Source of the DNA: an uncultured Faecalibacterium sp.
Lineage (GTDB): Bacteria > Bacillota > Clostridia > Oscillospirales > Ruminococcaceae
Assembly (NCBI GenBank): GCA_944386015.1
Contig: CALWZK010000011.1
Coordinates: 1 to 50,828 of the forward strand
DNA: 50,828 nt
Direction of reading: 5' to 3'
This document shows positions 40,984 to 49,223 of this stretch, in pieces. The notes under the pieces were generated by a model. It saw nothing but the letters and a program-made list of their open reading frames with translations. It searched no databases and had not been told where the DNA came from. The translations under genes were made by a program, and so were the position numbers. Each line of letters begins with the position of its first letter. Position 1 is the first letter of the stretch.

Positions 40984-41343
40984 CGCTTTAGGGGGAACCC
41001 ATTTCTGTGCGCATACGCGCAGCAGAAATTCCCTTGGTTGCGGTTCCCTGCTTTTGCGGCGGGCATCGTAGCGCCCTTGCAAAAGACAGACCGCGTTCCT
41101 CTTGCGCTTAGCCGATTTTTGCGGCGCACCGCAGCGGGTGCTTGCAAAAACCGGAGCGCTGCGCCAAACACAGCTCCCTGTTTCGTCCGCAGGACGCGGT
41201 CGCTGTGTTTGCCCCTGGGGACAAAATTTGGCGCAGAACCGCGCACTCGGCCTTGTGGCCTCGCACACTCTCTGCGCCAAATTTCCCTGTCGGTGTCCCG
41301 GCCGTACGCACATGTCGTCCGGCGGGGACATTTTTTGACAGTC
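40984..41343 (+). repeat. 360-bp hairpin-rich intergenic repeat, copy 1
   Basis: A non-coding element, 95-96% identical to 48296-48654. It folds into successive hairpins: H1 TTTCTGTGCGC/GCGCAGCAGAAA (41002-41028); H2 GCGGT...CTGCTTTTGC/GCAAAAG...ACCGC (41040-41094); H3 GCGCT...TTTTTGC...GCACC/GGTGC...GCAAAAA...AGCGC (41104-41159); H4 CAAACACAGC/GCTGTGTTTG (41165-41211) around CGTCC/GGACG; H5 a 14-bp stem AAATTTGGCGCAGA/TCTGCGCCAAATTT (41224-41284); and H6 GTCCCGGCCG/CGGCGGGGAC with TTTTTT (41295-41336). CGCTTTA at the start is inverted as TAAAGCG just past the end (41344-41350). I see no promoter within. Family not recognised. Confidence 0.85.
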
Positions 41344-41346
41344 TAA

Positions 41347-41382
41347 AGCGGAGCCTGCTTTCCGGCGGGCTCCGCTCTTTTT
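41347..41382. terminator. Hairpin after repeat copy 1, end of tmcAL
   Basis: AGCGGAGCC (41347-41355) pairs with GGCTCCGCT (41368-41376), with CTTTTT beyond on the plus strand. It abuts the tmcAL stop codon, so it may terminate transcripts from both sides. Confidence 0.65.
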
Positions 41383-42571
41383 ATAGCTTGATGAGGGGCT
41401 GGGTGAAGGCTGTCCCCATGGGGGCGGGGGTACGGCGGCACAGGGCGGTGAAGTCCGCCGCGGCCGCCTGGGCCCGGACAGCCAGGGCGCAGTCCTGGTT
41501 TTCCCGGGCCAGCTTGGCCAGGGAGGGGGACACCGGCAGGGACGCCCGGGCCAGCAGCCCCGCGGCCTCCTGCCGGAGGCCCAGCAGATGGAGATAGGGG
41601 GGCAGGGCGGGCAGATCCAGCCAGCCGGGGCCGGCGCCGTAGCCCAGGGCGGCGTCCATCACCAGGCGCCGCATCCGGGCCCGGGGATACCGGACGGTGG
41701 TCAGGTCATCCCACAGCCCTTCCAGGGTCACCGCCTGCCGGACTGCCTGGGCCAGACGGTGTTCCAGGCCCTCGGCGGCGCCGCGGACCCCGGCAAAGTC
41801 CTGCCGGGCCCGCAGCCGGGAGAGGGCGGCCAGGCTCACCGCCCCGAAATCGGTGTACTGCCCGGCGGCCCCGGCCTCCCGATAGAGGGCCAGTGCCTGC
41901 GGGGGCACATAGGGGGTCAGGGCCTCGGGGCCTTCCTGGGCCCAGAGGGCCCGGAGGGCGCTGGCGCTGGCATACCGGCCGGCGGTCCAGGCCTGGCCGT
42001 GGTCTGCCCCCTGGCGGGGCAGGGGCACCGGGGTGAGGGGGGCCTTCAGCTCCAGGATGGCCTTGCAGTATTCCACCGCCAGGTTGTTGTTGGGCCGGTC
42101 CAGCAGATCGGCCAGGCCAGCCCCGGGGCAGACCTGTTCCACTGCCGCCTGCCGGGCGGCGGCAAAGTGCCGGGCCCCGGCGGCCAGCTGCTGTTTCAGG
42201 GCTTCTCGGTAGGCAGGGGAGGCCAGCACCCGGGCGGCACGGGTCAGCAGCTCCACATCAGGGGTCTCGGCGCCGAACACCAGGGCATCGCACCCCGCTG
42301 CCGCCAGCACCGTCACCCCCGCCCGGGCAAAGGATTCTGCCCCCGACATGGCCCAGGGGGCGGGCAGGGCGAACACCAGGCTGGCCCCCGCTTCCAGGGC
42401 GGCCCGCACCCGCACCGGCTCGGGCAGCAGGGGCGGGGCGCCCCGCTGGGTCAGCCCGCAGCTGAGGGCCACCGCCGTGTGGGCGGCCCCCATCTGCCGG
42501 GCCGCTGCCAGCTGCCAGGCGTGGCCGTTGTGGAAGGGATCGTACTCTGCGATGATGCCGGCAAACTCCAT
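41381..42571 (-). CDS. tmcAL: tRNA(Met) cytidine acetate ligase-like nucleotidyltransferase
   Basis: A 396-residue protein of the TmcAL/YlbM family, which uses ATP and acetate to acetylate cytidine 34 of elongator tRNA-Met (ac4C). The nucleotidyltransferase motif is HNGH (14-17) within GIIAEYDPFHNGH. The substrate-binding segment RPNNNLAVEYCKAI appears near residue 150. ATG at 42571 follows AGGAGG by 5 bp; the open frame upstream is antisense to ackA and is not coding. It is divergent from ackA with overlapping -10 boxes. Confidence 0.93.
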   Translation of the reverse strand: MEFAGIIAEYDPFHNGHAWQLAAARQMGAAHTAVALSCGLTQRGAPPLLPEPVRVRAALEAGASLVFALPAPWAMSGAESFARAGVTVLAAAGCDALVFGAETPDVELLTRAARVLASPAYREALKQQLAAGARHFAAARQAAVEQVCPGAGLADLLDRPNNNLAVEYCKAILELKAPLTPVPLPRQGADHGQAWTAGRYASASALRALWAQEGPEALTPYVPPQALALYREAGAAGQYTDFGAVSLAALSRLRARQDFAGVRGAAEGLEHRLAQAVRQAVTLEGLWDDLTTVRYPRARMRRLVMDAALGYGAGPGWLDLPALPPYLHLLGLRQEAAGLLARASLPVSPSLAKLARENQDCALAVRAQAAAADFTALCRRTPAPMGTAFTQPLIKL

Positions 42572-42622
42572 GAAGCCTCCTGTATGTTGTACACAAGAAA
42601 TGATCTTTTTGGTCTTTTTCTC

Positions 42623-42651
42623 TTGAAAAGACGCTGGCTCTATTATATAAT
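42623..42651 (+). promoter_or_regulatory. Promoter of ackA
   Basis: TTGAAA (42623-42628), 17-bp spacer, TATAAT (42646-42651). The leader to the ATG is about 138 nt. The -10 box overlaps that of the divergent tmcAL promoter. Confidence 0.8.
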
Positions 42652-42670
42652 GTAAACAAATAGAACGCAA
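42642..42670 (-). promoter_or_regulatory. Promoter of tmcAL
   Basis: Minus strand: TTGCGT (42665-42670), 17-bp spacer, TATAAT (42642-42647). It shares the palindromic ATTATATAAT core with the ackA promoter. Confidence 0.6.
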
Positions 42671-42796
42671 TGGTTTGGAAAGTACAGCGCTTTTACGCTG
42701 CATTCTGGTCCGGGCCCTTGTGGTTTTCTTTGTAAGGAGTTCTGCCGGGGCACGCCCCTCAGACGGCAGAAAGTAAAACAGGAGGCAACGAAGAAG

Positions 42797-44002
42797 ATGA
42801 AAGTTCTGGTTATCAACTGTGGATCTTCTTCCCTGAAGTATCAGTTGATTGATATGGACGGCGAGAAGGTGCTGTGCAAGGGCCTGTGCGAGCGCATCGG
42901 CATGGAGAGCAGCATGATCACCCACGACGCCAACGGCCACAAGGCCACCACCCCCGCCATTTTCCCCACCCACACCGAGGCATTCAACGAGGTCATCAAG
43001 AAGATGACCACCGGCGCCGGCAAGTGCATTGAGAGCGTGGACGAGATCGACGCCATCGGTCACCGGGTGGTCCACGGCGGCGAGAAGTTCCAGTCCAGCT
43101 GCCTGATCACCGACGAAGTCATTGCCACCCTGCGTGAGCTGAGCCCCCTGGCTCCCCTGCACAACCCCGCCGGCATCCTGGGCATCGAGACCGCCCGCAA
43201 GGTCTTTGGCCCCAATGTGCCCCAGGTGGCTGTCTTTGATACCGCCTTCCACAGCACCATGCCCCCGAAGGCCTATATGTACGCCATCCCCTACGAGTAC
43301 TACACCAAGTACGGCGTCCGCCGCTACGGCTTCCACGGCACCAGCCACAAGTACGTCAGCCACAAGGCCGCTGAGTACCTGGAGGAGCCCATCAGCCGCC
43401 TGAAGCTGATCACCTGCCACCTGGGCAACGGTTCTTCCATCACCGCTGTGGACCAGGGCCGCGTTGTGGATACCTCCATGGGCATGACCCCGCTGGCCGG
43501 CCTGATGATGGGCACCCGCTGCGGCGACCTGGATCCCTCTGTGGTCAACTACCTGAAGTACACCCTGGACATCACCGGCCATCAGCTGGATGAGATCCTG
43601 AACAAGAAGTCGGGCCTGCTGGGCATCTCGGGTGTTTCCAGCGATATGCGCGACGTGGAAAAGGCAGCCCGTGAGGGCAACAGCCGCGCCGAGCTGGCCA
43701 TCGATATGCTGACTTACCAGATCAAGAAGCTGGTGGGCAGCTACATCTCCGCCATGGGCGGCGTGGACGCTCTGGTCTTCACCGGCGGCATCGGCGAGCA
43801 TGACGACATCGTCCGCGCCAAGATCTGCCACCACATGGACTGGCTGGGCATCCGCATCGATACCGACAAGAACCGCGATCCCCAGGGCGATGTCTGCGAG
43901 ATCACCGCCTGGGGCGCCAAGGTCCGCACCCTGATCATCGCCACCAACGAGGAGCTGATGATCGCCCGCGACACCAAGGAAGTCCTGGAGAACCAGCACT
44001 GA
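42797..44002 (+). CDS. ackA: Acetate kinase
   Basis: A 401-residue ASKHA kinase that interconverts acetyl phosphate + ADP and acetate + ATP, the substrate-level phosphorylation step of acetate fermentation. Motifs are VINCGSSSLKYQL (5-17), HRVVHGG (about 89-95), FDTAFHSTMP (about 149-158), GFHGTSHKYVS and HLGNGSSI in the nucleotide domain, and FTGGIGEHDD near residue 328. The length is standard. AGGAGG lies about 11 bp before the ATG. No pta gene is adjacent. Confidence 0.98.
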   Translation: MKVLVINCGSSSLKYQLIDMDGEKVLCKGLCERIGMESSMITHDANGHKATTPAIFPTHTEAFNEVIKKMTTGAGKCIESVDEIDAIGHRVVHGGEKFQSSCLITDEVIATLRELSPLAPLHNPAGILGIETARKVFGPNVPQVAVFDTAFHSTMPPKAYMYAIPYEYYTKYGVRRYGFHGTSHKYVSHKAAEYLEEPISRLKLITCHLGNGSSITAVDQGRVVDTSMGMTPLAGLMMGTRCGDLDPSVVNYLKYTLDITGHQLDEILNKKSGLLGISGVSSDMRDVEKAAREGNSRAELAIDMLTYQIKKLVGSYISAMGGVDALVFTGGIGEHDDIVRAKICHHMDWLGIRIDTDKNRDPQGDVCEITAWGAKVRTLIIATNEELMIARDTKEVLENQH

Positions 44003-44047
44003 GTTTTCCGGGCCCCGCCGGGGCTTGAAAAGACACCCAAATCCTTC

Positions 44048-44084
44048 AAAGGCCGCATGTCTTGACAGGCATGCGGCCTTTTTG
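44048..44084 (+). terminator. Terminator after ackA
   Basis: A 12-bp perfect stem AAAGGCCGCATG/CATGCGGCCTTT (44048-44081) with a 10-nt loop and a TTTTT tail. Confidence 0.92.
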
Positions 44085-44169
44085 TGCAAAGGGACAGGAT
44101 TTGACAAAAGCAAAAGTATGTCTTATGGCGCTGGAAATGGAATTTGCGCGGCACGCCTCTGTTTTTTGG

Positions 44170-44198
44170 TTGACAAATCCGGGAAAGCGGGGTACAAT
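44170..44198 (+). promoter_or_regulatory. Promoter of the zinc-ribbon gene, followed by an unassigned leader
   Basis: A near-consensus TTGACA (44170-44175), 17-bp spacer, TACAAT (44193-44198). The leader (about 44206-44332) has a hairpin TCCTCG-ACC-CGAGGA at its 5' end and an ATCG/CGAT stem further on. I did not recognise a known riboswitch. Confidence 0.8.
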
Positions 44199-44332
44199 AA
44201 GGGAGTCCTCGACCCGAGGATGATATCATGCTTCAAGCCCCTGGTAGCTTACGATCGGCGCGATGGTCCCCAAAAACCAAGGTGTGTTCCAATCCTTCCG
44301 CGGGCAAGAACAAAACAAGAGGAGATACTACA

Positions 44333-44620
44333 ATGTTCGAAGACAAGACTTTAGTTTGCAAGGACTGCGGCAAGGAGTTTGTTTGGACTGCCGGCGAGCA
44401 GGAGTTCTATGCATCCCGCGGCTTTGAGAATCAGCCCCAGCGCTGCAAGGCTTGCCGTGACGCCCGCAAGAACGGCGTCCGTCCTGCCGGCACCGGTGAG
44501 CGCAAGATGTACGACGCTGTGTGCGCTTCCTGCGGCAAGGCCTGCAAGGTTCCCTTCCAGCCCCGTGAGGACCGCCCCGTCTACTGCTCTGACTGCTTCG
44601 CTCGCATCAAGCAGAACTAA
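44333..44620 (+). CDS. Small zinc-ribbon protein with three CxxC pairs
   Basis: A 95-residue basic protein containing a probable zinc-ribbon domain: CKDCGKEFVWTAGEQEFY, then CKACRDARK (residues 9-45), and a second partial site CASCGKAC followed by CSDC near the C-terminus. This family is widespread in Clostridia, and its function is not established; nucleic-acid or protein binding is plausible. GAGGAG lies about 8 bp before the ATG. It has a strong promoter, a long leader and its own terminator. Confidence 0.88.
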   Translation: MFEDKTLVCKDCGKEFVWTAGEQEFYASRGFENQPQRCKACRDARKNGVRPAGTGERKMYDAVCASCGKACKVPFQPREDRPVYCSDCFARIKQN

Positions 44621-44634
44621 GATGTAACCCCGAA

Positions 44635-44673
44635 GGGCTCCTGCTGCCGCAAGACAGCGGGAGCTCTCTTTTT
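44635..44673 (+). terminator. Terminator after the zinc-ribbon gene
   Basis: GGCTCCTGCTG pairs imperfectly with CAGCGGGAGCT (44635-44664), followed by CTCTTTTT. Confidence 0.8.
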
Positions 44674-44686
44674 GTGACCCGGTTAC

Positions 44687-44716
44687 TTGCAAATTCCGGG
44701 AACTTTGGGGTATCAT
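44687..44716 (+). promoter_or_regulatory. Probable promoter of the DUF1858-trmK-nif3-rqcH operon
   Basis: TTGCAA (44687-44692), 18-bp spacer, TATCAT (44711-44716), about 40 bp before the DUF1858 gene start. Confidence 0.55.
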
Positions 44717-44765
44717 ACAGATACCAATCGAATGCATCACACCCTGCATGAAAGGAATTGCCATC

Positions 44766-45023
44766 ATGTTTGATATTTTCAGTTCTGTCCGCAAGAACCA
44801 CAGCGACGAGCCCTTCCAGGTGACCCGCGAGACCGTCATCGGCGACATCCTGGATCTGGACAGCTCCACCGCTCCCTATTTCATGGAGATCGGCATGCAC
44901 TGCCTGGGCTGCCCCGCCTCCCGCGGCGAGAGCATCGAGGAGGCCTGCGCCGTCCACGGCGTGGACTGCGACGCCCTGATCCAGAAGCTGAACGATCACC
45001 TGGCAGCCAAGGCCCAGGGCTGA
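44766..45023 (+). CDS. DUF1858 domain protein
   Basis: An 85-residue protein of the DUF1858 family (related to the N-terminal domain of ScdA/RIC iron-cluster repair proteins). The signature MEIGMHCLGCPASRGESIEEAC contains the conserved Cys-x-x-Cys (about residues 47-50). It is thought to bind or handle iron; the precise role is unknown. ATG at 44766 has AAAGGAA about 9 bp upstream, and that site overlaps the alternative start at 44748. trmK begins 1 bp after the stop. Confidence 0.88.
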   Translation: MFDIFSSVRKNHSDEPFQVTRETVIGDILDLDSSTAPYFMEIGMHCLGCPASRGESIEEACAVHGVDCDALIQKLNDHLAAKAQG

Positions 45024-45024
45024 G

Positions 45025-45675
45025 ATGGTTCTGGATGCACGGCTGGCAGCCGCTGCGGCGCTGGTGCGCCCGGGGCTGCCGGTGGCAGACATCGGCTGTG
45101 ATCACGGCAAGCTGACTGCAGCGCTGGCCTGTTCGGGCCTGTACCCCAAAGTAATCGGTTCCGACTTGCGGCCCGGCCCCCTGGCCAAGGCCCGCCGGAC
45201 CGTAGAGACGGCACACTGTCAAGACCGCGTCGAGCTTCGGCTGGGCGACGGTCTTTCTGTGTTGTCGGCGGGGGAGGTGGGCACCATCGTGATTGCGGGG
45301 GTGTCGGCCCAGACCGCCTGGGAAATGCTGGAAGCAGCCCCCTGGATCTTTTCGCCCCAGGGCCCCCGGCTGGTGCTGATCCCAGCCACCCGCCACGACG
45401 AGCTGCGCCGCTGGCTGGCGGGCCATGGGTTCCGGCTCTGCTGCGACAAACCGGTGGAGGCAGCCGGCCGGTGGTATGCGGTGATGGCGGCAGAATATGA
45501 CGGAGTCTGCCGCCGGCTGACCCTGGCTGAGGCCCTGTATGGGCAGACCGGCCAGTGGCCCGGGGCGGAGGGTTATGCCGCCAAACAGCTGGAAAAACTG
45601 GTCAAACTGCGGCGGGGCGTGCCGGACGGCAGCCCCGAGGCAGAGGAGATGGATCGTCTGATCCAGGGAGGGTGA
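45025..45675 (+). CDS. trmK: TrmK-like tRNA (adenine22-N1)-methyltransferase
   Basis: A 216-residue SAM-dependent methyltransferase of the TrmK family, which methylates A22 in the tRNA D-arm. SAM motif I is DIGCDHGKLTAAL (about 22-34), then GSDLRPGPL. The usual AGMGG segment reads AGVSA, and the QPN-type segment reads IPA, so it is a divergent member. The C-terminal coiled-coil-like part is present. The gene is tightly packed between DUF1858 and nif3 (3-bp gap), a common Firmicutes arrangement. Confidence 0.85.
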   Translation: MVLDARLAAAAALVRPGLPVADIGCDHGKLTAALACSGLYPKVIGSDLRPGPLAKARRTVETAHCQDRVELRLGDGLSVLSAGEVGTIVIAGVSAQTAWEMLEAAPWIFSPQGPRLVLIPATRHDELRRWLAGHGFRLCCDKPVEAAGRWYAVMAAEYDGVCRRLTLAEALYGQTGQWPGAEGYAAKQLEKLVKLRRGVPDGSPEAEEMDRLIQGG

Positions 45676-45678
45676 ACC

Positions 45679-46458
45679 ATGGAGATCACGGTGCAAACCA
45701 TTTATGAGGCGATGGCCCGGCTGGCCCCGCCCCAGCTGGCCGAAAGCTGGGACAATGTGGGCCTGCTGGTGGACTGCGGGAAGCCGGTGGAGCGGGCCCT
45801 AACGGCCCTGGACATCACCCCCGAGGTGGTGGAGGAGGCCCGGCAGCTGGGCTGCGGGGTGATTGTCTCCCACCACCCGGTGATCTTCTCCCCCCTGAAA
45901 AAACTGGGCCCGAAGGACGTGCCCTTCCTGCTGGTGGAGGCGGGGATTTCGGCGGTGTGCATGCACACCAACTACGACGCTGCCGAGGGCGGCGTCAACG
46001 AAATCCTGGCCGCCATCTTCGGGATGCGGAACCCGGAACCCTTCGCCGAAGGCTGCGGCCGGGTGGGGGAGATTGACCCCATCACGGTGGAGGGGCTGGC
46101 AGCCCTGGCCCAGGACCGTCTGGGGGCCCTCTGCGTCCCGCCCTTGCAGGGGCCCGCGGTCCAGGTAAAGTACACCGACAACGGCCGGATGGTCCGGCGG
46201 CTGGCAGTGATCAGCGGCTCGGGGGGCAGCCTCTTTGAGGATGCCCTGGCCGTGGGGGCCGACTGCCTGCTGACCGGCGAGGCCAACCACCACGCCGCCT
46301 GCGACGCCAAACGGCTGGGGCTGGGGCTGATCGCCGCCGGCCACTACGCCACCGAATACCCGGCCGCCGCCGCCCTGGCCGACCGCCTCCAGCGGGAGGT
46401 GCCGGGTCTGGCGGTGATTGCCAGCCGGGAAAACCGGGACCCCTTTACTTATTTATAA
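45679..46458 (+). CDS. Nif3-like dinuclear metal centre protein
   Basis: A 259-residue NIF3/DUF34 family protein that forms hexamers with a di-metal site. Metal-ligand histidines are in VSHHPVIF (about 64-71), CMHTNYD (about 94-100), and GEANHHAA and GHYATE near the C-terminus. GTP cyclohydrolase-like activity has been proposed for some homologues; the biological role is unresolved. The pairing with trmK is common in Firmicutes. GGGAGGG precedes the ATG. Confidence 0.93.
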   Translation: MEITVQTIYEAMARLAPPQLAESWDNVGLLVDCGKPVERALTALDITPEVVEEARQLGCGVIVSHHPVIFSPLKKLGPKDVPFLLVEAGISAVCMHTNYDAAEGGVNEILAAIFGMRNPEPFAEGCGRVGEIDPITVEGLAALAQDRLGALCVPPLQGPAVQVKYTDNGRMVRRLAVISGSGGSLFEDALAVGADCLLTGEANHHAACDAKRLGLGLIAAGHYATEYPAAAALADRLQREVPGLAVIASRENRDPFTYL

Positions 46459-46494
46459 TAGGAGACAGGGGCCCAACACGAGAGGGGGAACACC

Positions 46495-48240
46495 ATGGCA
46501 TTGGATGCCGCGACGCTGGCACTGACGGCGGCCGAACTGGGCCGCATGGTGACCGACGCCAAGATTGCAAAGATATTTGAGCCCACCCGGGATGAGCTGG
46601 TCATCACCCTGCGCACCCGCACCGAGACCTACAGCCTGCTGCTGTCGGCCCGCAGCGGGTCGGCCCGGGTGTGCCTTACCGACGAAACCTTTGAAAACCC
46701 CGAGACGCCGCCCTCCTTCTGCATGCTGATGCGGAAGCACCTCACCGGCGGCCGCCTCACCGGGGTGCGGATGGAGCCGGGGGACCGGATTGTCTATTTT
46801 GACTTCCTGTGCACCAACGAGATGGGGGACCTGGTGACCAACACCCTCTGCGCCGAGCTGATGGGCCGGTACTCCAACCTGGTGCTGGTCCAGAGCGGCA
46901 AGATCATCGACGCCCTCAAGCGGGTGGATTTTGAGGACAGCGAAATCCGGCAGCTGCTGCCGGGGCTGCCCTACACCGTGCCCCCCAAGCCGGCCCGGCC
47001 CGACTTCCTGGCGTCCAGCGCCGCCTCCATTGTGGCCCAGGCCTGCCAGAAGGACCTGCCGGTGGCCAGCGCCCTCAACCGGACGGTGGCCGGGGTGGGC
47101 CCGGTGGTCTGCCGGGAGGTGGCCTGGCGGGCCTTTGGCCCCCAGGACCTCACCGCCTGCGAGCTGGACCAGGCCCAGCAGCGGACCCTGCTGGAAGCCA
47201 TCGAGGCGCTGAAAGCCGAGCACGCCGCCGGCGGCACCCCCTGCAGCGTGGTGAGCCCCGAGGGCAAACCTCTGGAGTTCACCTTCTTCCAGCCCCAGCA
47301 GTACGGTGCCGGGTATGAGATCCGCCGGTGGCCTTCCTTCTGCGAGATGCTGGAGGGCTACTACGCCGAGAAGGACCGGGCCGAGCGGCTGCGAACCAAG
47401 AGCAAGGAGCTCCACAAGGCGGTCCACAATATGTATGAGCGGGCGGTCCGCAAACAGGCGGCCCGGAAAGAGGAACTGGCAGCCAGCGAAAAGAGCGAGC
47501 AGCTGCGGCTGTACGGCGAGCTGCTGTCGGCCAACCTCTACCAGGCCCAGAAGGGGATGAAGAGCATCACCGTCCCCAACTGGTACGACGAGGGGAAGGA
47601 AGTCACCATCCCCCTGGATGTCCGCTACAGCCCCAGCCAGAACGCCCAGAACTTCTTCAAGGCCTACAAGAAGAAGCAGACCGCCGCCCGGATGCTGGTG
47701 GACCTGCTGGCCGAAGGCGAAAAGGAAATCGCCTATCTGGAAACGGTGCTGTACGAGGTGGAGAGTGCCCCCGGCGAGGCGGCCCTCAACGAGATCCGGG
47801 CCGAGCTCAAGAGCCAGGGCTACCTGAAATACTACAAGCAGCGGGACAAAAAGCAGAAGCCTGCCGACTTCTACCGCTATGTGTCGTCGGACGGGTTCGA
47901 GATTCTGGTGGGCCGCAACAACATCCAGAACGAGCGTCTGACCCTCCACACCGCCCGGGGCAAGGACCTGTGGTTCCATACCAAGAACGCTCCCGGCAGC
48001 CACACGGTGGTGATGAGCAACGGCAAAGACATCCCCGACCGCACCCGGGAGGAGGCCGCCCAGCTGGCGGTGCTCCATTCCAGCCAGGCCAGGGGGGTCA
48101 AGGTGGCGGTGGACTACACCGAGGTGAAGAACATCCGCAAAACCAGCGACCTCAAGCCCGGCATGGTGCTGTATGAGAAGTACGAGACCGCCTACATCAC
48201 CCCCGACCCGGCCCTGCTGGACAAGCTGCGCAAAAAGTAA
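46495..48240 (+). CDS. rqcH: Ribosome quality-control protein RqcH (NFACT/FbpA family)
   Basis: A 581-residue NFACT protein, the bacterial NEMF/Rqc2 homologue. RqcH binds 50S subunits carrying stalled nascent chains and adds alanine tails that mark them for degradation. The order is NFACT-N domain (about 1-180), helical linker, coiled coils (about 290-350 and 395-450), then an NFACT-R domain with DLWFHTKNAPGSHTVV near residue 490. Older annotation as fibronectin-binding protein is misleading. GAGAGGGGG lies before the ATG. The repeat copy 2 begins 55 bp after the stop. Confidence 0.94.
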   Translation: MALDAATLALTAAELGRMVTDAKIAKIFEPTRDELVITLRTRTETYSLLLSARSGSARVCLTDETFENPETPPSFCMLMRKHLTGGRLTGVRMEPGDRIVYFDFLCTNEMGDLVTNTLCAELMGRYSNLVLVQSGKIIDALKRVDFEDSEIRQLLPGLPYTVPPKPARPDFLASSAASIVAQACQKDLPVASALNRTVAGVGPVVCREVAWRAFGPQDLTACELDQAQQRTLLEAIEALKAEHAAGGTPCSVVSPEGKPLEFTFFQPQQYGAGYEIRRWPSFCEMLEGYYAEKDRAERLRTKSKELHKAVHNMYERAVRKQAARKEELAASEKSEQLRLYGELLSANLYQAQKGMKSITVPNWYDEGKEVTIPLDVRYSPSQNAQNFFKAYKKKQTAARMLVDLLAEGEKEIAYLETVLYEVESAPGEAALNEIRAELKSQGYLKYYKQRDKKQKPADFYRYVSSDGFEILVGRNNIQNERLTLHTARGKDLWFHTKNAPGSHTVVMSNGKDIPDRTREEAAQLAVLHSSQARGVKVAVDYTEVKNIRKTSDLKPGMVLYEKYETAYITPDPALLDKLRKK

Positions 48241-48253
48241 AGACCATTCCTCG

Positions 48254-48299
48254 AGCGCCCGCGGAAGCGGGCGCTTGAGCGTGTCGAAAACGACACGCT
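48254..48299 (+). other. Tandem hairpins between rqcH and repeat copy 2
   Basis: AGCGCCCGC-ggaa-GCGGGCGCT (48254-48275) is followed by a 9-bp perfect stem AGCGTGTCG-aaaa-CGACACGCT (48278-48299). The second stem includes the first bases of repeat copy 2. Neither is followed by a strong T-run. Nothing comparable precedes copy 1. Confidence 0.6.
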
Positions 48300-48654
48300 T
48301 TAGGGGGAACCCATTTCTGCGCGCATGCGCGCGGCAGAAATTCCTTTGGTTGCGGTTCCCTGCTTTTGCGGCGGGCGTCGTGGCGCCCTTGCAAAAGGCA
48401 GACCGCGTTCCTCTTGCGCTTAGCCGATTTTTGCGGCGCACCGCAGCGGGTGCTTGCAAAAACCGGAGCGCTGCGCCAAACACAGCTCCCTGTTTCGTCC
48501 GCAGGACGCGGTCGCTGTGTTTGCCCCTGGGGACAAAATTTGACGCCGAACCGCGCACTCGGCCTTTCGGCCTCGCACACTCTCTGCGCCAAATTTCCCT
48601 GTAGGTGTCCCAGCCGTACGCGCATGTCGTCCGGCTGGGACTTTTTTGACAGTC
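48296..48654 (+). repeat. 360-bp hairpin-rich intergenic repeat, copy 2
   Basis: The same element and orientation as 40984-41343, with about 15 substitutions and a 1-nt deletion. The central stretch of about 145 bp is identical. In H1 the stem TGCGC/GCGCA of copy 1 is CGCGC/GCGCG here, a compensatory change. In H6 the GG mismatch of copy 1 is an A-T pair here (GTCCCAGCCG/CGGCTGGGAC), followed by TTTTTT. The H5 stem has two mismatches in this copy. It lies between rqcH and the S10 operon, both on the plus strand. Confidence 0.85.
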
Positions 48655-48687
48655 AGAAGCGCCTGCATCAGCGGGCGCTTCTGTTTT
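48655..48687 (+). terminator. Hairpin after repeat copy 2
   Basis: AGAAGCGCC (48655-48663) pairs with GGCGCTTCT (48674-48682), followed by GTTTT. It occupies the same place as the hairpin after copy 1 but has a different sequence. Confidence 0.65.
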
Positions 48688-48741
48688 GTGGGGTTTGTCA
48701 AAATTTTGGGCCGCAATTTATGGAATTTGTAGGATTGCCTC

Positions 48742-48891: not shown

Positions 48892-49223
48892 GGCTGCAAA
48901 GGGCTTGTGCGATACAAGTCGTGCAGGCCACGATATGCGATGATGCGGGAGGTTGCCGCACGGCGAAACGCCGATGCGGGTTATTTCCGCGGAGTATGTC
49001 CGATCTATGAACCGGGCGAAAGAATTACTGACAGTGAAGGGATATGTCCCCGCAGCATAGCTGCGACGCGGACCAATGTCTGCTTATCTTTGCTAGATTT
49101 CTTTCCGGGAAAACTGCGTGGCGGTTTACCGGCTTTTCTAATGCGAAGATGTGAGACACCCGGAACAGTGTGCAGTGATTGATCGAGTTGCCCATACTAC
49201 ACATTATCAGGAGGCACAACCAA
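48892..49223 (+). promoter_or_regulatory. Long structured leader of the S10 ribosomal-protein operon
   Basis: About 330 nt without a credible gene between promoter P2 and rpsJ. Visible stems include CCGCACGGCG/CGCCGATGCGG (around 48956-48979) and GCAGC/GCTGC (around 49052-49065). Such leaders usually mediate feedback by a ribosomal protein encoded in the operon (L4 in the E. coli S10 operon). I did not identify a binding-site consensus. Confidence 0.6.

What the first reader, a model, noticed from the sequence alone, without database searches (positions are those of the whole stretch)
40984..48654. A 360-bp hairpin-packed non-coding repeat occurs twice, 7 kb apart
Positions 40984-41343 and 48296-48654 are about 95-96% identical, in the same orientation, each beginning within about 60 bp of a plus-strand stop codon. 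The element is nearly all paired: six or seven consecutive hairpins, the largest with a 14-bp perfect stem, ending in a stem plus T6. Comparing the copies in two antisense frames, nearly every difference changes an amino acid (for example P/S, V/A, M/T, C/R and Y/H), so protein-level selection is unlikely. I do not recognise a named RNA or MITE family. It could be a 3'-UTR-processed structured RNA, a long insulator-terminator, or a palindromic non-autonomous mobile repeat.
Basis: partly seen in the sequence, partly recalled or inferred. Interest (0 to 1): 0.85.

Follow-up and report, generated by a model that had tools for sequence, protein, structure and literature searches.

The report
Mobile repeat that duplicates terminator hairpins
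The repeat looks like a short mobile DNA element of Faecalibacterium and related gut bacteria that inserts at the stop signal (terminator hairpin) behind a gene and leaves a copy of that whole hairpin on each side, which would let it multiply with little harm to its host.

Summary
In detail: 40984-41343 and 48296-48654 are 96% identical and hairpin-packed. It is not a two-copy curiosity: the window's genome (genus Faecalibacterium) has at least 65 matches, in modular arrangements. The basal element (about 210-220 bp) is a MITE (non-autonomous transposable element). Its ends (AGCGTGTCGAAAA / AGACTGTCAAAAA) match those of IS1182-family insertion sequences from other genera: a matrix built from those ends ranks the three predicted element ends as the top 3 of 101,630 window positions. 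It inserts at the foot of terminator hairpins and duplicates the whole hairpin. A related genome carries the empty site of window copy 2 with one terminator; another has its own insertion behind the same gene in the opposite orientation. Whole-hairpin duplications of 20-39 bp flank 14 of 21 IS1182-clade copies; one IS, letter-identical at four sites of one genome, has 20, 23 and 30 bp at three of them. Similar duplications flank 35 of 65 related MITEs in two sister genera. So the hairpin, not the transposase, sets the duplication length. Published IS1272 (same family) removes its target hairpin; whole-hairpin duplication was only a hypothetical branch. No matching transposase was found in the MITE-bearing genomes searched, so the mover is inferred.

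The parts
40984..41344 (+). Copy 1 of the element (left terminal inverted repeat and any left hairpin copy missing; right end reads AGACTGTCAAAAA on the minus strand at 41332-41344)
   Evidence: no element at this place in G001, G024 and G014
41345..41382 (+). Terminator hairpin and T-tract at which copy 1 inserted; the element's right end abuts its 5' foot
48253..48276 (+). Left copy of the duplicated target hairpin of copy 2 (no T-tract)
48278..48655 (+). Copy 2 of the element, both ends present (basal element with extra internal modules)
48278..48299 (+). Left-end hairpin AGCGTGTCG-AAAA-CGACACGCT holding the left terminal inverted repeat (rank 2 of 101,630 positions)
48346..48528 (+). Extra internal segment (modules B and C), absent from the basal element; module C also occurs in other composite repeats of the genome (boundaries approximate)
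48607..48647 (+). 3'-terminal hairpin with conserved apical loop (RCATGTC) followed by T6: terminator-like
48643..48655 (-). Right terminal inverted repeat of copy 2 (TGACTGTCAAAAA, rank 3 of 101,630)
48656..48688 (+). Right copy of the duplicated target hairpin of copy 2, with its T-tract (intrinsic terminator of the NFACT gene)

Best explanation
A miniature inverted-repeat transposable element (MITE) moved in trans by an IS1182-family DDE transposase. The target is recognised as a hairpin, typically an intrinsic terminator, with no evident shared primary sequence. The element joins at the foot of the hairpin on both strands, so the staggered cut spans the whole hairpin and repair leaves one full hairpin on each side. 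The right-hand hairpin keeps the T-tract and the left-hand one whatever lay on its outer side, so genes on both sides can keep a terminator, and the element brings one of its own. Shown here: mobility by empty sites and a separate insertion behind the same gene; end sequences; whole-hairpin duplication; hairpin/terminator targeting; duplication length following the hairpin. Inferred: that an IS1182 transposase does it; that the target is an extruded cruciform attacked at both 5' feet (pathway b of Wan et al. 2017); that insertion is near-neutral for transcription.
For: Empty site of copy 2 in G001: query 1-777 and 1157-1651 match stretches that overlap by 25 bp; one terminator where the window has hairpin-element-hairpin. 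G014 has an insertion of the element behind the same gene in the opposite orientation, also between two similar hairpins. Copy 1 absent in G001, G024 and G014, which have one terminator; its right end abuts that terminator. A matrix from 34 ends of 17 IS1182 ISs of other genera ranks the three predicted element ends 1, 2 and 3 of 101,630. Of 21 IS1182 loci with a good end pair, 14 are flanked by a direct repeat that is a whole hairpin, 20-39 bp, 13 perfect and 1 with 2 mismatches; a scan without any end motif found 13 of these. One IS, identical at four sites of G509 over 1524 bp, has repeats of 20, 23 and 30 bp at three. Five of five transposases tested are NF033551 IS1182. Faecalibacterium copies: left hairpin abutting in 23 of 45 against 0.5% at control positions; left/right flanks more alike than 99.9% of permuted pairs in 9 of 42. 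Sister-genus MITEs with the same left end: abutting hairpin 51 of 65 against 24 of 1300; flanking duplication 35 of 65.
Against: No transposase of the whole-hairpin clade turned up in 31 Faecalibacterium genomes (best match 32% identity). PF13751 gave no match in G000; G152 is not among the 48 matching family genomes; the 8 weak matches in G185 belong to an IS with other ends. A minority of Faecalibacterium copies still show both hairpins (9 of 42); an abutting right hairpin was seen in 11 of 29; window copy 2 itself scored above 99% but not 99.9% of permuted pairs, its hairpins having diverged. In 30 of 65 sister-genus copies no duplication passed. Five of 21 IS copies have two different hairpins at their ends, which simple insertion does not explain. 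The motif used to place IS ends was written after I had seen both IS and element ends, so the matrix test is not fully blind. No experiment.
Confidence: 0.85

Rival explanations
1. A structured RNA (3'-UTR-derived sRNA or cis-element) that spread by selection for an RNA function; the transposon ends are secondary.
For: Strong structural conservation: 96.3% of cells paired, 29 of 61 pairs with double changes, covariation score 0.230 against 0.087 in shuffles, 0 of 500 shuffles as high; apical loop conserved across 42 copies and, by eye, RCATGTC in sister genera.
Against: G-T pairs are 29 of 2557 cells although 194 cells are double-changed; I would expect more under RNA selection (recalled, no RNA control was run). 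Sister-genus elements share the ends but largely different internal sequence, by eye. Target duplications and empty sites are transposition marks.
Confidence: 0.12
2. Duplicated terminators are selected double terminators, not target-site duplications; the element merely lies between them.
For: Double terminators exist in bacteria (recalled); the elements carry a terminator-like hairpin of their own.
Against: The related empty site has one terminator. Duplications are often letter-perfect including loops (13 of 14 ISs; 19 of 35 MITEs by my count of the listing), and one identical IS has a different hairpin at each site.
Confidence: 0.03
3. The element is moved by a transposase of another family whose ends happen to resemble IS1182 ends.
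For: No whole-hairpin-clade IS1182 transposase found in the MITE-bearing genomes searched.
Against: Both the end sequence and the unusual whole-hairpin duplication are shared with the IS1182 clade. The multi-copy 329-aa transposase of G185, the one alternative looked at, has ends reading GGCAATACCGC.
Confidence: 0.12
4. A simple recent duplication of one intergenic region.
For: Two nearly identical copies 7 kb apart.
Against: At least 65 matches in the genome and matches in 24 of 25 genomes of the genus, own included.
Confidence: 0.01

Closest known systems
IS1272 / TnSha1 (IS1182 family; Furi et al. 2016 PMC4923244, passages read; Wan et al. 2017 PMC5678879, abstract, passages and part 1 of 2 of the Discussion read)
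   Same: IS1182-family transposase; targets are hairpins without sequence consensus, several of them transcription terminators; both orientations reported at one target (Furi et al.).
   Different: IS1272 deletes or replaces the target hairpin and leaves no target duplication; here the whole hairpin is duplicated. Whole-stem-loop duplication appears in Wan et al. as hypothetical pathway b.
IS1182-like ISs of Faecalibacterium with ends GGAGCTGTTGACAAA (L213, L215)
   Same: Same transposase family, inserted in hairpins, in L215 a terminator-like one.
   Different: By reading the flanks they duplicate 5 bp, roughly the loop (GCTTC; AAAAC, for which the script reported 9 bp with 4 bp belonging to the IS ends), like hypothetical pathway c. 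L215 falls outside the whole-hairpin clade.
BOX elements and BIME/REP repeats (recalled)
   Same: Intergenic, multi-copy, modular, hairpin-rich, non-autonomous.
   Different: Here: IS1182-type ends, terminator targeting and whole-hairpin target duplication; no sequence comparison with them was run.
Group IIC introns (recalled: insert after terminator hairpins)
   Same: Preference for intrinsic terminators.
   Different: No target duplication expected (recalled); no group II intron match in the Rfam scans.

Membership tests
MITE of the IS1182 family | Terminal inverted repeats like those of an autonomous IS1182 element | tested here: met
   Ends rank 1-3 of 101,630 with a matrix from 34 IS1182 ends of other genera; the end motif was not chosen blind
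MITE of the IS1182 family | Short, no transposase gene, many copies | tested here: met
   About 210-220 bp basal form (41 of 55 pairs have landmarks 170-179 bp apart); 65 matches in own genome
MITE of the IS1182 family | Same target and target-duplication mode as the autonomous element | tested here: met
   Whole-hairpin duplications in ISs (14 of 21) and in MITEs (9 of 42; 35 of 65)
MITE of the IS1182 family | Partner transposase in the same genome or genus | tested here: not met
   PF13751 in 8 of 31 genus genomes, none in G000; best match to a whole-hairpin-clade protein 32% identity; many genomes are drafts
MITE of the IS1182 family | Mobilisation in trans by an IS1182 transposase | not testable with these tools
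   needs a transposition assay
IS1272-type hairpin replacement | Target hairpin deleted, no target duplication | tested here: not met
   Hairpin duplicated at the empty/filled pair of copy 2
Known Rfam RNA family | Match at gathering score | tested here: not met
REP/BIME mobilised by RAYT (Y1 transposase) | RAYT gene in the genome, REP-type termini | not tested
   no PF01797 search was run
IS1182 family (the autonomous ISs used here) | NCBIfam NF033551 over its cut-off | tested here: met
   5 of 5 proteins tested (four whole-hairpin ISs and L216), 347-423 bits against a cut-off of 270; the other loci were placed by PF13751 or by similarity to L227 only

The most novel reading that the evidence does not exclude
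A clade of DDE transposases, with a large family of MITEs across this bacterial family, reads DNA shape: it attacks the two 5' feet of an extruded terminator cruciform, so that the target duplication has no fixed length but equals the hairpin, and a terminator is duplicated with every insertion. This realises the hypothetical whole-stem-loop branch for IS1182-type transposition and is a way to colonise harmless sites on both sides of which genes can keep a terminator.
Probability: 0.6. Interest if true: 0.8.

Novelty: new variant of a known kind. Interest (0 to 1): 0.66.

Why it matters
Target-site duplications normally have a near-constant length for a given transposase (established knowledge, recalled). 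Here the length is written by the target's secondary structure, which gives a natural record of hairpin recognition and makes an open question (does IS1182 transposase recognise extruded hairpins, and at which foot?) testable with one IS. It may also explain a class of hairpin-packed intergenic repeats in gut Clostridia that sit at contig breaks, and it suggests how an element can reach tens of copies in a small genome by choosing sites where insertion is likely to do little harm.

Tried and rejected
Rfam: nothing. Phages: 3 weak partial matches, all in the C-module part; plasmids none; viral contigs none for the 3'-loop pattern. Simple duplication: rejected by copy number. An element sharing only the left 28 bp (C48) was first taken for an autonomous partner; it looks like an unrelated IS inserted into a copy. 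The G020 IS1182 (L216) was tried as partner because its end reads AGACTGTC; 1 of 297 family genomes matched it and its site is not a hairpin duplication. The 329-aa multi-copy transposase of G185 has other ends. Of two plasmid-borne IS1182 relatives fetched, L293 (Exiguobacterium) has two different hairpins at its ends and L294 (Sutcliffiella) gave no usable end pair. Literature: 10 searches (searches returned nothing) listed no paper on these Faecalibacterium repeats or on whole-hairpin duplication that I recognised; beyond PMC4923244 and PMC5678879 I saw only passages of PMC3281130, PMC3196728 and PMC4438569 and the listings. The main IS reviews are not held, and I recall that ISfinder lists IS1182 duplications of 0-60 bp, so part of this may be catalogued already.

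Full report
WHAT WAS CHECKED. The two copies are real: 40984-41343 and 48296-48654, same strand, 96% identical. Both fold better than shuffles (z -7.8 and -7.7; 0 of 100 shuffles as good). Copy 1 lies between an ABC-transporter gene and a minus-strand HIGH-nucleotidyl-transferase-family gene, copy 2 between an NFACT gene and an S10-Clostridia leader. No Rfam family fits.

COPY NUMBER AND HOST. The window's genome G000 (2.2 Mb, 83 contigs, 89.6% complete) has 65 matches to the 360 bp at E <= 0.001. This is a lower bound: 40 of 83 candidates were scored, and 7 matches lie within 300 bp of a contig end. Matches occur in 24 of 25 genomes of the genus, own included (the miss is G009), and in 0 of 16 genomes of other families. 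The left end alone is found in 10 of 31 genus genomes at E <= 1e-5, so the full element is less widespread than its C module. A 21-base pattern from the 3' hairpin hits 68 stretches in the named genome collection: 67 titled Faecalibacterium (An121, An122, F. gallinarum and MAGs, several with chicken-derived names) and 1 titled Faecousia. The host is therefore a Faecalibacterium.

ANATOMY. Copies are mosaics. In 41 of 55 left/right pairs the landmarks are 170-179 bp apart; this basal element is about 210-220 bp. The window copies carry an extra segment (modules B and C), and module C also occurs in other composite repeats. The ends are AGCGTGTCGAAAA, inside a hairpin AGCGTGTCG-loop-CGACACGCT, and TTTTTTGACAGTCT, right after a hairpin. 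Across 42 basal copies the structure covaries: 96.3% of cells paired, 29 of 61 pairs with double changes, 194 double-changed cells, 0 of 500 shuffles as high; sliding the 3' partners by 1-3 columns destroys it (RNAalifold: 52 pairs, 25 with double changes). G-T pairs are 29 of 2557 cells and non-pairs 94. I read the scarcity of G-T intermediates as favouring selection on, or templated repair of, DNA hairpins; no RNA family was run as a control, and an RNA role is not excluded.

TARGET AND DUPLICATION. Filled and empty sites of copy 2 show the event: G001 has one terminator, the window hairpin, element, hairpin; the two BLAST pieces overlap by 25 bp in G001. G014 has its own insertion of the element behind the same gene, in the opposite orientation and again between two similar hairpins; its hairpin sequence differs from that of the window. 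Copy 1 is absent from G001, G024 and G014, which have a single terminator there; its right end abuts the 5' foot of that terminator, and its left end is missing. Among Faecalibacterium copies a hairpin abuts the left end in 23 of 45 (0.5% at control positions, 39 copies x 20) and the right end in 11 of 29; the two flanks are more alike than 99.9% of permuted pairs in 9 of 42. Window copy 2 is the tenth, above the 99% level only: its hairpin copies have diverged.

WHO MOVES IT. PF13751 loci were collected in the genus (8 of 31 genomes) and the family (48 of 297), and relatives of the L227 protein at E <= 1e-60 in the order (19 of 394). Whole-hairpin repeats first appeared in a search for inverted ends plus direct repeats without any end motif (L226, L227, L229, L234), and a motif-free scan for direct repeats found 13 in all. 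With an end motif, of 58 loci scanned 46 gave some pair and 21 a good pair (at most 2 mismatches in total; four of the 21 are one IS in G509): 14 are flanked by a direct repeat that is a whole hairpin (20-39 bp; 13 perfect, 1 with 2 mismatches), 5 have two different hairpins at the ends, 1 is cut by a contig end and 1 (L223) has an 8-bp repeat. The G509 IS is identical over 1524 bp at its four sites, yet its repeats are 20, 23 and 30 bp at three of them and two different hairpins flank the fourth: the transposase does not set the length. Five of five transposases tested are NF033551 IS1182. In a midpoint-rooted tree of 28 proteins the 12 whole-hairpin ISs included fall in one 20-tip clade (support 0.998) with 5 two-hairpin tips, 1 left-hairpin tip and two unclassified tips (L222, L223), apart from L214/L215 of Faecalibacterium. 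A weight matrix from the 34 ends of 17 such ISs, none from Faecalibacterium, ranks the three predicted element ends 1, 2 and 3 of 101,630 window positions; the motif that placed the IS ends was written after both kinds of ends had been seen.

REPLICATION IN SISTER GENERA. 13 of 297 family genomes, 3 of them Faecalibacterium, match the basal element, mostly over part of it (2 candidates scored per genome). In G185 and G152 the left-end palindrome occurs 37 times each, 0 times in the reversed-pattern control. Of the 65 copies examined there (copies without an A-rich loop were dropped, and some of G152 were not listed or fetched), a hairpin abuts the left end in 51 (24 of 1300 random upstream positions), and 35 (20 of 36 and 15 of 29) have flanking duplications above 99.9% of permuted pairs; 19 of the 35 are letter-perfect by my count. 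Two of the 35 (L328, L344) do not end cleanly at the right end of the element, and one permuted pair scored 45, perhaps from overlapping stretches. A further example is in G100 (L309). Internal sequences differ between genera, but ends, architecture and an apical-loop motif RCATGTC are shared, by eye.

MECHANISM. Wan et al. 2017 (PMC5678879; abstract, passages and part 1 of 2 of the Discussion read) showed IS1272 replacing target stem-loops and drew a hypothetical branch in which attack at both 5' feet of a cruciform would duplicate the whole stem-loop, and another duplicating the loop. Furi et al. 2016 (PMC4923244; passages read) reported partial hairpin deletion and no duplication, several targets being terminators. 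The elements here fit the whole-stem-loop branch; L213 and L215 fit the loop branch. Cruciform extrusion and the order of cuts are inferred, not shown. The searches named under 'tried and rejected' listed no report of whole-hairpin duplication, but the main IS reviews are not held.

AGAINST. No whole-hairpin-clade transposase was found in the MITE-bearing genomes searched, although drafts may miss one. Five ISs and one plasmid IS (L293) have two different hairpins at their ends; recombination between copies is my guess. Most Faecalibacterium copies no longer show both hairpins. No expression data exist here.

VERDICT. The repeat is a MITE with IS1182-type ends; its striking property is structure-defined, whole-terminator target duplication, which appears to be a habit of an IS1182 clade and its MITEs in gut Clostridia.

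Noticed in passing
G000 C7:41378-41559, C24:14427-14608, C38:18045-18226, C70:3260-3440: Another composite repeat type beginning TGATCTAAACCCTCCGGGTTGCGG shares modules B and C with the window copies.
   Followed up: no
G000 C2:106353, C22:264, C38:6533, C45:12914, C5:17247, C63:5929, C7:54728, C79:6488: A third composite type carries module C and ends near a terminator-like hairpin such as TTTGCTTACTTTTCTTCCAGAAAAGTAAG; several copies lie close to contig ends.
   Followed up: no
L205 (G000:C48 end), G000 C66 start, C2 end: An apparent multi-copy IS with ends AGCACCTAACAAAACC looks inserted inside one copy of the element and breaks the assembly.
   Followed up: partly
L228, L236, L257, L258, L264, L293: IS1182 copies with two different hairpins abutting the two ends; perhaps recombination between copies or another joining outcome.
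   Followed up: partly
L213, L215: IS1182-like ISs in Faecalibacterium that seem to duplicate only the hairpin loop (GCTTC, AAAAC).
   Followed up: partly
window 48932-49019: S10-Clostridia ribosomal protein leader (RF03136, 46.4 bits) downstream of copy 2.
   Followed up: no
L142: One Faecousia MAG contig carries the element's 3'-hairpin pattern; possible misbinning or horizontal transfer.
   Followed up: no
L386-L390 (G185): Eight copies of a 329-aa transposase gene with ends GGCAATACCGC, several as tandem pairs about 1.39 kb apart.
   Followed up: partly
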